NCBI RefSeq assembly: GCF_011762045.1
Contig: NZ_JAASQS010000009.1
Span: 124,001 to 188,000, forward strand
DNA: 64,000 bases
Origin: Rhizomicrobium electricum
Lineage (GTDB): Bacteria > Pseudomonadota > Alphaproteobacteria > Micropepsales > Micropepsaceae
Direction of reading: 5' to 3'
In this document: positions 55,692-58,584 of the stretch, one piece after another
Position numbering within the stretch: position 1 is the first letter of the stretch
How the letters are laid out: each line of letters begins with the position of its first letter
Notes under the pieces: model-generated
Told to the model about the DNA's origin: nothing
Seen by the model: only the letters and a program-made list of their open reading frames with translations
Databases searched by the model: none
Position numbers and translations under genes: made by a program

Positions 55692-56633
55692 TCAGAGAAG
55701 TCCGGTCGTTTCGGGCAGACCGAGCATGATGTTCAGGTTCTGCACCGCCGCCCCGCCCGCGCCCTTGCCGAGATTGTCGAGCAGCGCCACCAGACGCACC
55801 TGCCCGCTGGCGTCGTTGCCGAACACGAACAGCTTGATCTTGTTGGTGCCTTTCAGCGCTTCGGCATCGAGGTTCGCCACCTTGAGATCGGCCGGTGCAA
55901 CTTCGACCAGAGGCTGGCTGGCATACGCATCCGCCAGGACGCGATGCAGATCGGCCGACGACGGCACGCCCGGCAGCGCCCACAGCGCCAGCGGCACTTC
56001 CACCAGCATACCGCGGTAGAAGCGTCCGACGAACGGCGCGAACACCGGCGTGTGCGCGAGGCCGGTATGGGCCTTCATCTCCGGCAGATGCTTGTGCGTC
56101 AGCGTCAGCGCGTAATTGCGCACCACCGTTTCGGTGTAGTCCGGCGCGTCCTTCTTCTCGAATTCCTCGACCATCTTGCGGCCGCCGCCCGAATAGCCGG
56201 AGACGCCGTTGGCGGTGACCGGAAAATCGACCGGCAGCACGCCGGCGCGCACCAGCGGACGCACCAGGCTCACGAACGCCGTCGCCCAGCAGCCGGGATT
56301 GGAAACGCGCTTGGAGGCCGCGATCTTCTCGCGCTGGCCCGGTTCGAGTTCGGCAAAGCCGTAGGTCCAGCCCGGCGCAGTGCGATGGGCGGTGGAGGCA
56401 TCCACGACGCGCACGTCCGGGTTCTCGATCAGCGATACGGCTTCGCGCGCCGCATCGTCGGGCAGGCACAACACCACGAGGTCGGCATCGTTGAGGGCGC
56501 GCGCACGGGCCTTGGCATCCTTGCGATCGGCCTCGCCGAGCTGCACGACCGTCAAGTCGCGTCGCCCGGACAGCCGCTCGCGGATCTCAAGACCTGTCGT
56601 TCCCGCTGCGCCGTCGATGAAGACCTTAGCCAC
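55692..56633 (-). CDS. argC: N-acetyl-gamma-glutamyl-phosphate reductase (type 2)
   Basis: A 313-residue enzyme of arginine biosynthesis that reduces N-acetylglutamyl phosphate to the semialdehyde. It is the shorter, type 2 form: FIDGAAGTTGLEIRERLSGR at the nucleotide-binding N-terminus, DASTAHRTAPGWTYGFAEL, active-site Cys in VSNPGCWATAFV, GVSGYSGGGRKMVEEF and a C-terminal VQNLNIMLGLPETTGL. The start codon is GTG (56633), with AGAGGGAC upstream. No other arg genes are nearby. The Sel1-repeat gene ends 69 bases upstream on the same strand. Confidence 0.95.
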   Translation of the reverse strand: MAKVFIDGAAGTTGLEIRERLSGRRDLTVVQLGEADRKDAKARARALNDADLVVLCLPDDAAREAVSLIENPDVRVVDASTAHRTAPGWTYGFAELEPGQREKIAASKRVSNPGCWATAFVSLVRPLVRAGVLPVDFPVTANGVSGYSGGGRKMVEEFEKKDAPDYTETVVRNYALTLTHKHLPEMKAHTGLAHTPVFAPFVGRFYRGMLVEVPLALWALPGVPSSADLHRVLADAYASQPLVEVAPADLKVANLDAEALKGTNKIKLFVFGNDASGQVRLVALLDNLGKGAGGAAVQNLNIMLGLPETTGLL

Positions 56634-56702: not shown

Positions 56703-58361
56703 TCAGCCCTTGGTGGCAGGGGTATCGTTGGCGGCGGCATCGACCGCGGCCGGGCGGAACGCCATCGCCGCCGCATCGGCCGCTTCGCGCTCTTCCGGCG
56801 TCAGTTCGACGGCCAGCGTCTGGGCGCGCGCGGCGGCATTGCGGTCGCCGAGCCGGGCGGCGACGGCATACCATTTGTAGGCCTGCGGCCGGTTGCGCAC
56901 GACGCCCTCGCCGCGCTCGTAGAGGATCGCCAGATCGAAGGCGGCATCGACTTCGCCGAACGCCGCGGCCTTGGCGAACCATTCCGCCGCCTTGGCGAAA
57001 TCGGTGCCTTCCGGCCAGCCGCCGGCATACAGCTTGCCGAGATTGGTCATCGCCTTGAGATTGCCCGCCTTGGCGGCGCCCTCGTACCAGCCGATCGCCA
57101 CCGGCATGTTGGCGCCGACGCCGGTGCCGGTCTGGTAGATCACGCCCATCAGGTTCTGCGCCACCGGCTGGCCGCGCAAAGCCGCGCGCCCGATCCACAG
57201 CCGTGCCTTGTCGAGGTCGACCGGTACGCCGGTGCCGTTCAAATACTTCAGTCCGCGGACGAGTTGGGCGCGCGGGCTCCATTCGGGTTTGGCGGTGACC
57301 GGCGGTGTGAGCTTCGTGACGGCGGCCGGAACGTCCGCCCCTTGGGCCGGCTGATAATGCGCGAAAACGTAGATATCGAACCACGCGACCAGCGCTGCCA
57401 CCGCCGCCAGGATGGCCCAGCGGCGCTTGCCGAGAAACCGCAACCATGCCGGCCGGTGCTTCGCCGGATGGTTGGCCCTCCGCACTGCCGCATCGTTGGC
57501 GGCGCGACGCGCCGAGACGAGGTAATCGGCCACGCGAACGGTTGGCTCCGTGGCGGCGGGCTCCGCTTCCACGGCCGGCTCGATATCCGAGGCCTCCGGC
57601 GCGACCACTTCGGGCTCATAGGGCTGCGGCTCCGGCACCAGCGCTTCCATGCGGACCGGCTCGAGCAGCGGCCCGCCGCTGCGCAGATTGTGGACGTCCA
57701 GCCGAATCTGGGCCAACGCCGACGTCTGCCTCTCCTCGAACTTCTCCAGCCGCTGCCGCAGGCCGTGCAGCCGTTCCGCCAAGGCGCCGGTGTCGACGTC
57801 GACGCTCTTCAGCCGCTCGCCCATGCGCTGCTCAAGGCTCTGCAGCGATTTCTCGGCCACACTGAGACGGGCATCCAAACGCGCCAGCGCCGCATCGGTC
57901 GCGGTGCGCGGCTTGGGGACGATGACCTGCTTGGTGATTTCCTGCAGCGCTTCGGCCTGGGCCCGCATCAGCGCATCGTAGCTTTCCGCCTCCTTCGGCG
58001 GCTGCGGTTCGTCGGCAGGAACAGCGTCCGGCTGCACTTGGGCCGACGGCGGATCGTCCGGCAGCGGCTCGGCGGACGGCACGATCTCCAGTACCGGTTC
58101 CTCGGGCGGCACGGCATCCGTCACCAATTGGACTGACGGCACGGCTTCGAGCGAGGGCGTGGCCGACGGCAACGCGATCGGCGGCACGGCGTCCGGCGGC
58201 GCCACCATAGCGATCAATTCCTGCCGGCTCGCGAAATGCGCGTATATCACGCTGCGGGCGAAATTCACCTCGCGCGCGACCGCGCTCAAAGTCACCGCGT
58301 CAGTCCCGCCGCGACGATACAGTGCCTCGGCCGCGGCGATGATCGCCGCCCGGACATTCAT
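56703..58361 (-). CDS. membrane-anchored TetR-HTH / coiled-coil / Sel1-repeat protein
   Basis: A 552-residue multi-domain protein. Residues 3-52 are a canonical TetR-type DNA-binding domain: AAIIAAAEALYRRGGTDAV and VAREVNFARSVIYAHFASRQ. Residues 53-130 are a Pro/Glu/Val-rich linker, about 154-225 a coiled coil (ARLDARLSVAEKSLQSLEQR), followed by a second acidic linker, a basic juxtamembrane patch (KHRPAWLRFLGKRR), a single TM helix at about 315-334 (AILAAVAALVAWFDIYVF), and a periplasmic region with about four Sel1-like repeats (364-514: YLNGTGVPVDLDKARLWIGR, AAKAGNLKAMTNLGKLY). The TetR ligand domain is missing. The C-terminal two-thirds resemble PodJ-type polar proteins. TTG 58394 and two GTGs are alternative starts. 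Confidence 0.75.
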   Translation of the reverse strand: MNVRAAIIAAAEALYRRGGTDAVTLSAVAREVNFARSVIYAHFASRQELIAMVAPPDAVPPIALPSATPSLEAVPSVQLVTDAVPPEEPVLEIVPSAEPLPDDPPSAQVQPDAVPADEPQPPKEAESYDALMRAQAEALQEITKQVIVPKPRTATDAALARLDARLSVAEKSLQSLEQRMGERLKSVDVDTGALAERLHGLRQRLEKFEERQTSALAQIRLDVHNLRSGGPLLEPVRMEALVPEPQPYEPEVVAPEASDIEPAVEAEPAATEPTVRVADYLVSARRAANDAAVRRANHPAKHRPAWLRFLGKRRWAILAAVAALVAWFDIYVFAHYQPAQGADVPAAVTKLTPPVTAKPEWSPRAQLVRGLKYLNGTGVPVDLDKARLWIGRAALRGQPVAQNLMGVIYQTGTGVGANMPVAIGWYEGAAKAGNLKAMTNLGKLYAGGWPEGTDFAKAAEWFAKAAAFGEVDAAFDLAILYERGEGVVRNRPQAYKWYAVAARLGDRNAAARAQTLAVELTPEEREAADAAAMAFRPAAVDAAANDTPATKG

Positions 58362-58584
58362 CTGCACCACACTGTTTGTCTGTGCGCCGGACAATTGGCT
58401 CGGGACCCTTGACGTCCGCGTCTACTTTGAGCCGTGTTGGTGAAGAAAGTCTTGGCCCTAATATCGAGTTAGGAAAGCGGTAAACAATTCCGTTACTGGG
58501 ACCCCGGCGATTGAAACGTCAACGACCGGTTAAGCAGAATTTTCTAGCCTAGAGTCGCCCAGCGCTATCCGGAGTGCCGTCGCC

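What the first reader, a model, noticed from the sequence alone, without database searches (positions are those of the whole stretch)
56703..58361. TetR DNA-binding domain fused to coiled coil, transmembrane helix and periplasmic Sel1 repeats
The sequence shows a clear TetR-type HTH at the N-terminus, no TetR ligand-binding domain, then two disordered linkers, a coiled coil, one TM helix and about four Sel1-like repeats. TetR regulators are normally soluble and about 200 residues. The topology here resembles ToxR/CadC one-component membrane regulators, but with a TetR HTH and a repeat sensor. The coil-TM-Sel1 part resembles PodJ-type polarity proteins, so an alternative is a polar scaffold that has borrowed an HTH to touch DNA. 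Either would be an unusual link between the envelope and the chromosome.
Basis: partly seen in the sequence, partly recalled or inferred. Interest (0 to 1): 0.72.

Follow-up and report, generated by a model that had tools for sequence, protein, structure and literature searches.

The report
Membrane-anchored DNA binder from PodJ-type scaffold
This gene encodes a real, conserved bacterial protein with a TetR-type DNA-binding head, a membrane anchor and a repeat domain outside the membrane; it evolved from a PodJ-like cell-pole scaffold protein and would physically link the cell envelope to the chromosome, although its DNA targets and signal are unknown.

Summary
It is not an artefact: 37 of 43 homologues have TetR_N in the same architecture, and the HTH is under purifying selection. 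A tree places the family as one clade (99/94) nested inside the PodJ-type proteins of its own order, and its coil matches the last cytoplasmic coil of the PodJ-type paralogue. It is therefore a PodJ-type protein whose N-terminal coiled-coil region was replaced by a TetR HTH, once. Full-length matches were not found outside that order. The most likely role is a membrane-tethered one-component regulator; a DNA-tethering scaffold is the main rival. The HTH was lost twice, so the membrane half seems to have a job of its own. In about 19 relatives the gene follows a P19-cupredoxin-FTR1 iron operon with a Fur-box-like promoter, but the window's genome has no FTR1. DNA binding, targets and signal remain untested.

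The parts
56703..58394 (-). whole gene, 563 aa, TTG start at 58394, stop at 56703-56705
   Evidence: TTG start conserved in relatives that lack an ATG
58197..58358 (-). TetR-type helix-turn-helix (residues 13-66)
   Evidence: Pfam TetR_N 41 bits; AF2 and Foldseek TetR fold; purifying selection
57984..58196 (-). disordered Pro/Glu-rich linker (residues 67-137), fast evolving and variable in length
   Evidence: pLDDT mostly below 50; dN 0.66 against G051
57678..57983 (-). cytoplasmic coiled coil (residues 138-239), homologous to the last coil of PodJ-type paralogues
57537..57677 (-). second disordered linker (residues 240-286)
57471..57536 (-). pre-membrane helix with the motif YLVSARRAA (residues 287-308), resembling SYLAAARRSARAA of the own PodJ-type paralogue
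57360..57416 (-). transmembrane helix core (residues 327-345)
   Evidence: hydropathy 2.19; positive-inside charge bias
56760..57275 (-). periplasmic Sel1 solenoid (residues 374-545)
   Evidence: Pfam Sel1 88.8 bits; AF2 pLDDT above 90; PDB Sel1 matches
58437..58489 (-). conserved non-coding element upstream of the gene (AATTGTTTACCGCTTTCCTAACTCGATATT... CCAAGACTTTCTTCACCAA), presumed promoter; single copy in the genome
58585..59664 (+). divergent pentapeptide-repeat gene, neighbour in the closest relatives only
55692..56633 (-). argC-like (N-acetyl-gamma-glutamyl-phosphate reductase) gene downstream, neighbour in the window's clade

Best explanation
It is a membrane-tethered, one-component DNA-binding regulator built from a PodJ-type scaffold. 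Shown by sequence and prediction: a cytoplasmic TetR HTH on a long flexible linker, a coiled coil that could replace the missing TetR dimerisation domain, one N-in/C-out membrane helix, and a periplasmic Sel1 solenoid; descent of everything but the HTH from a PodJ-type protein. Inferred: two HTHs are brought together by the coil and bind a short DNA site; the Sel1 solenoid binds a periplasmic or peptidoglycan-associated partner; that binding changes the oligomeric state or position of the protein, so that target promoters are switched at the membrane, much as in ToxR/CadC-type regulators but with unrelated parts.
For: TetR_N present in 37 of 43 homologues and held by selection (dN/dS in the HTH about 0.19 for window against G051, 0.07 for G032/G035, 0.08 for G054/G037; linker dN 0.66 against HTH 0.09 in the first pair). 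HTH ancestral to the clade, since both of its deepest branches have it. Topology N-in/C-out and a coil before the membrane. Transmembrane transcription regulators are common and mostly single-pass (PMC10269533), and in an engineered case a whole TetR protein placed on the membrane protein ChiS in place of its own DNA-binding domain partly restored activation of a promoter carrying tetO (PMC11856585). A periplasmic Sel1 protein as a signalling input is known from ExoR (PMC4550343). In about 19 relatives the gene follows an iron-uptake operon on the same strand, as a regulatory gene might.
Against: No DNA binding or regulation has been tested. No dyad was recognised by eye in the conserved upstream element, and near matches to it were not found elsewhere in the genome. 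The HTH was lost twice (G016+G025; G065+G067) with no remnant found, while the coil and Sel1 stayed constrained in the one HTH-less pair measured, G065/G067. Gene neighbourhoods differ between clades. The 70-residue disordered linker gives no rigid spacing of the two HTHs.
Confidence: 0.5

Rival explanations
1. It is mainly a structural scaffold: a PodJ-type envelope protein that uses the TetR HTH to hold a chromosomal site (or DNA in general) at the membrane or pole, with no direct role in transcription. It would work like SlmA, RefZ or Noc in using a DNA binder to give positional information.
For: Direct descent from a PodJ-type protein including its last coil; PodJ of Caulobacter is a polar scaffold with cytoplasmic coils, one TM and a periplasmic repeat region (PMC9684454); the membrane half is kept under selection in the HTH-less pair measured; the TetR-family proteins SlmA and RefZ act in division placement (PMC4117426, PMC6657595).
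Against: Varied recognition helices in the family fit specific regulators as well as tethers; polar localisation unknown.
Confidence: 0.3
2. The HTH no longer binds DNA but serves as a protein-protein interaction or folding module on a PodJ-type scaffold.
For: Lost twice without loss of the rest; some clades have HTHs far from the TetR consensus, e.g. G070 (24.8 bits with a family-trained model).
Against: The window's HTH fits the TetR_N model nearly end to end (profile positions 1-45 of 47) and is about as constrained as the Sel1 part.
Confidence: 0.15
3. Artefact: two neighbouring genes joined by a frameshift or a misassembly.
For: None beyond the unusual architecture; one relative (G018) does have a frameshift inside its copy.
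Against: TetR_N and Sel1 lie in one open frame in 37 homologues, including the single-contig genome G066; the window's assembly is 100% complete and 0.54% contaminated.
Confidence: 0.01

Closest known systems
PodJ (polar organelle development protein of Alphaproteobacteria)
   Same: Last cytoplasmic coil (hhalign 98%, E 1.9e-13), an ARRAA-like pre-membrane motif, one TM helix and a Sel1 domain (44% identity over the Sel1 part to the own-genome paralogue); the clade is nested within PodJ-type proteins.
   Different: N-terminal multi-coil region replaced by a TetR HTH; no PG_binding_1 domain (nor in the own PodJ-type paralogue); localisation unknown.
Transmembrane transcription regulators (ToxR, CadC, TcpP and others; PMC10269533)
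   Same: DNA-binding head in the cytoplasm, flexible linker, single TM helix, periplasmic domain.
   Different: TetR HTH instead of the winged helix of ToxR/CadC; PodJ-derived coil and Sel1 repeats; no evidence yet of regulation.
TetR-family regulators, including SlmA and RefZ
   Same: TetR_N helix-turn-helix.
   Different: No C-terminal ligand-binding or dimerisation domain; membrane anchored; 563 aa.
ExoR and MotX-type periplasmic Sel1 proteins
   Same: Periplasmic Sel1 repeats used for protein partners; ExoR inhibits the sensor kinase ExoS.
   Different: ExoR is secreted and has no membrane helix or DNA-binding domain.

Membership tests
TetR family of regulators | TetR_N helix-turn-helix at the N-terminus | tested here: met
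   41 bits against cut-off 24; TetR fold
TetR family of regulators | C-terminal helical ligand-binding and dimerisation domain directly after the HTH | tested here: not met
   No TetR_C family matched; disordered linker after residue 70
Transmembrane transcription regulators | DNA-binding domain plus predicted transmembrane region in one protein (definition of PMC10269533) | tested here: met
Transmembrane transcription regulators | controls transcription from the membrane | not testable with these tools
   needs ChIP-seq/DAP-seq and mutants
ToxR/CadC family proper | OmpR-type winged-helix DNA-binding domain | tested here: not met
   DNA-binding domain is TetR_N; no Trans_reg_C match in Pfam
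PodJ | TM helix plus periplasmic Sel1 region of PodJ type, common descent | tested here: met
   tree; alignment
PodJ | last cytoplasmic coil before the membrane | tested here: met
   hhalign 98%, column-shuffled controls at or below 0.1%
PodJ | long N-terminal coiled-coil region | tested here: not met
   replaced by HTH and disordered linker
PodJ | C-terminal peptidoglycan-binding domain | tested here: not met
   no match in Pfam; absent in the own PodJ-type paralogue too
PodJ | polar localisation and partner recruitment | not testable with these tools
   needs microscopy

The most novel reading that the evidence does not exclude
A polarity scaffold exchanged its coiled-coil head for a sequence-specific DNA-binding domain and became a direct mechanical and signalling link between the periplasm or cell pole and chosen chromosomal sites: a new, lineage-specific class of envelope-chromosome connector.
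Probability: 0.35. Interest if true: 0.8.

Novelty: new variant of a known kind. Interest (0 to 1): 0.62.

Why it matters
Membrane-bound transcription factors and PodJ-type polarity scaffolds are each known, but a protein that is by descent a PodJ-type scaffold and carries a DNA-binding head was not found in the papers searched. The family gives a natural experiment: relatives with and without the HTH let one ask what the DNA-binding head adds to a polarity-type scaffold, and whether a TetR HTH can work on a long flexible tether without its own dimerisation domain.

Tried and rejected
Frameshift or misassembly: rejected, 37 homologues carry both parts in one frame. FTR1 iron uptake as the general function: not general, the window's genome has no FTR1 (with control genomes ringing) and the window's clade sits by argC. 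Operator search: the element upstream is conserved in the closest relatives but I saw no conserved palindrome, and a scan of the own genome (3 and 2 mismatches) finds only this copy. Origin of the HTH from a TetR gene near podJ: in G000 a TetR gene lies about 13 kb from the PodJ-type gene, but the other loci read do not show this consistently. A ribbon-helix-helix in the PodJ-type N-terminus: only E 0.21 to HicB, not claimed. Full-length relatives outside the order: none among 386 genomes spread over the class at E 1e-50; weaker or independent TetR-Sel1 fusions elsewhere are not excluded. Literature: no paper on a TetR-Sel1 or TetR-PodJ fusion found in the open library.

Full report
What is there. 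The minus-strand ORF 56703-58394 encodes 563 residues. Pfam finds TetR_N at residues 18-62 (41 bits, cut-off 24) and four Sel1 stretches (88.8 bits, cut-off 30.7), and no TetR C-terminal domain. AlphaFold2 with 43 homologues gives, in order, the HTH helices (6-64), disorder, helices 138-156 and 165-239, disorder, a helix at 287-308, the membrane helix within 316-346, and ten helices of a Sel1 solenoid at 374-545 with pLDDT mostly above 90. The HTH predicted alone matches TetR-family crystal structures throughout its best hits. The long helix shows a heptad pattern that none of 2000 shuffles reached, and the cytoplasmic flank of the membrane helix holds 10 Lys/Arg against 1 Asp/Glu, while the other side holds 3 against 2. 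The hydrophobic core of the membrane helix is AILAAVAALVAWFDIYVFA.

Start site. The nearest relatives (G051, G027, G020) lack an ATG here and share a TTG at the position of the window's TTG at 58394, several relatives with GGAG-type sequence before it. The protein then begins MSGAQTN.

It is a family, not an accident. Homologues were collected from the same family of genomes and aligned (A1). Pfam TetR_N matches 37 of 43 members and Sel1 all 43. The contig of the window is part of a 16-contig assembly rated 100% complete and 0.54% contaminated, and the fusion is also present in a single-contig genome, G066.

Selection. In close pairs the HTH changes slowly at the protein level and the linker quickly: window against G051, dN 0.09 (HTH), 0.66 (linker 1), 0.08 (coil), 0.11 (Sel1), with dS 0.48 in the HTH; G032 against G035, HTH dN 0.025 and dS 0.38; G054 against G037, 0.10 and 1.27. 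The values are Nei-Gojobori estimates on short segments and are rough; the same table has pairs with weaker constraint (G081 against G024, HTH ratio about 0.6). In the pair without HTH, G065 and G067, the coil (dN 0.11, dS 0.62) and the Sel1 part (0.07, 0.50) remain constrained, so the membrane half seems to have a function that does not need the HTH.

Origin. The tree of the TM-Sel1 part puts all 44 members of this family in one clade (99/94) inside the PodJ-type proteins of the same order, next to the paralogues of its own genus (the support of some outside forks is moderate). Both of the deepest branches within the clade hold members with HTH, so the HTH was most likely there at the start, and its absences need two losses (G016+G025, which are sisters, and G065+G067, which are sisters). 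A profile of the coil region aligns with the last cytoplasmic coil of the PodJ-type paralogue (98% probability, E 1.9e-13; ten column-shuffled controls gave 0.1% or less), at the right place in the order of parts, whereas the HTH profile does not match that protein. Coiled coils can look alike by composition, so the order of parts matters here as much as the score. The own genome's PodJ-type paralogue has an 846-residue open frame on contig C4, with 44% identity over the Sel1 part. It has Sel1 repeats but no peptidoglycan-binding domain, so I call it PodJ-type rather than PodJ. Together: this is a PodJ-type protein with its N-terminal coiled-coil region replaced by a TetR HTH, once, in one lineage.

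Distribution. With the family profile, full-length matches occur in two genera of one family, which is the only family held for its order. In 386 genomes drawn evenly from the class, every match outside that family at E 1e-50 or better covers only the C-terminal part (the earliest begins at profile position 250 of 542), most of the strong ones in frames of about 800 to 1500 residues, as expected of PodJ-type proteins. The organism is an alphaproteobacterium by the named relatives; I did not name it further.

Neighbourhood. In the window's clade the gene has argC downstream and, in the nearest members, a divergent pentapeptide-repeat gene. In about 19 of 40 loci the gene lies downstream, on the same strand, of an iron-uptake operon: Fe2+ transport protein (P19 type), cupredoxin, FTR1, in compact cases about 24 to 157 bases after FTR1. 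These loci fall in two separated branches of the tree (G054/G037 and the larger clade), so the linkage may be old. That operon's upstream region carries a conserved TTGAGAATNAGTTGCA-like site, which resembles a Fur box (resemblance by eye, not scored). The window's genome has no FTR1, so iron uptake cannot be the general target.

Upstream element. In the closest relatives a block of about 55 bases (58437-58489 in the window) is nearly identical between genomes whose surroundings are not; its 3' part is still visible in more distant relatives without the pentapeptide neighbour, so it probably belongs to this gene. It may be the promoter. I saw no conserved dyad of the TetR kind, and the genome has no second copy within the mismatches allowed.

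How it most likely works. The HTH is built and kept like a DNA-binding one; the coil could bring two together; the membrane helix fixes them near the membrane; the Sel1 solenoid should face the periplasm. The best-supported reading is a one-component regulator tethered to the membrane (0.5). A DNA-tethering scaffold is the main rival (0.3), and an HTH that has turned into an interaction module comes next (0.15). An engineered precedent exists: a whole TetR protein on the membrane protein ChiS supports activation from tetO (PMC11856585), though that TetR was the full protein. Nothing here shows DNA binding, sensing or location.

Comparison. It meets the definition of a transmembrane transcription regulator in anatomy (PMC10269533) but is not a ToxR/CadC protein, since its DNA-binding domain is of another family. 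It is not a TetR-family regulator in the full sense, since the second domain is missing. It is related to PodJ by descent but fails two of PodJ's features. Hence 'new variant of a known kind'. That survey found over a hundred DNA-binding domains in membrane regulators; its supplementary tables were not read, so TetR_N may be among them, and only the PodJ-derived architecture is claimed as unreported in the papers searched.

Noticed in passing
L062:3649-6637, L065, L066, L068, L087, L092 and about 13 further loci: In relatives the gene follows a P19-cupredoxin-FTR1 iron-uptake operon on the same strand, whose upstream region has a conserved TTGAGAATNAGTTGCA-like site resembling a Fur box.
   Followed up: partly
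genome G000 (whole assembly): No FTR1 permease in the window's own genome, although control genomes ring, so the linkage seen in relatives does not exist here.
   Followed up: yes
L055, L057, L063, L064: Two independent losses of the HTH (G016+G025; G067+G065) without remnant; in the G067/G065 pair the coil and Sel1 part remain under purifying selection.
   Followed up: partly
L056:4922-6538: The copy in G018 has its HTH in a different frame from the coil and Sel1 part: a frameshift or a sequencing error in that draft genome.
   Followed up: no
L151:7773-10310 and L157:9485-13690: PodJ-type paralogues of this order end after the Sel1 repeats, without a peptidoglycan-binding domain, and begin with PWSVAGISTEAREAARAAARREGLSVGEWL or similar, which looks faintly like a ribbon-helix-helix (HicB E 0.21 for one of them, not significant).
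   Followed up: partly
window 58437-58489: A non-coding block of about 55 bases is nearly identical in the closest relatives; TTYACC-like direct repeats, no recognised dyad, single copy in the genome.
   Followed up: partly
L062:6639-9654: In several relatives a BrkB-family gene (opposite strand, abutting the end of this gene) and an AsmA-family gene follow it: more envelope-related neighbours.
   Followed up: no
L152:1247-1942: A TetR gene about 13 kb from the PodJ-type gene of G000 has an HTH close to this family's; not consistently seen near the PodJ-type gene in other genomes.
   Followed up: partly
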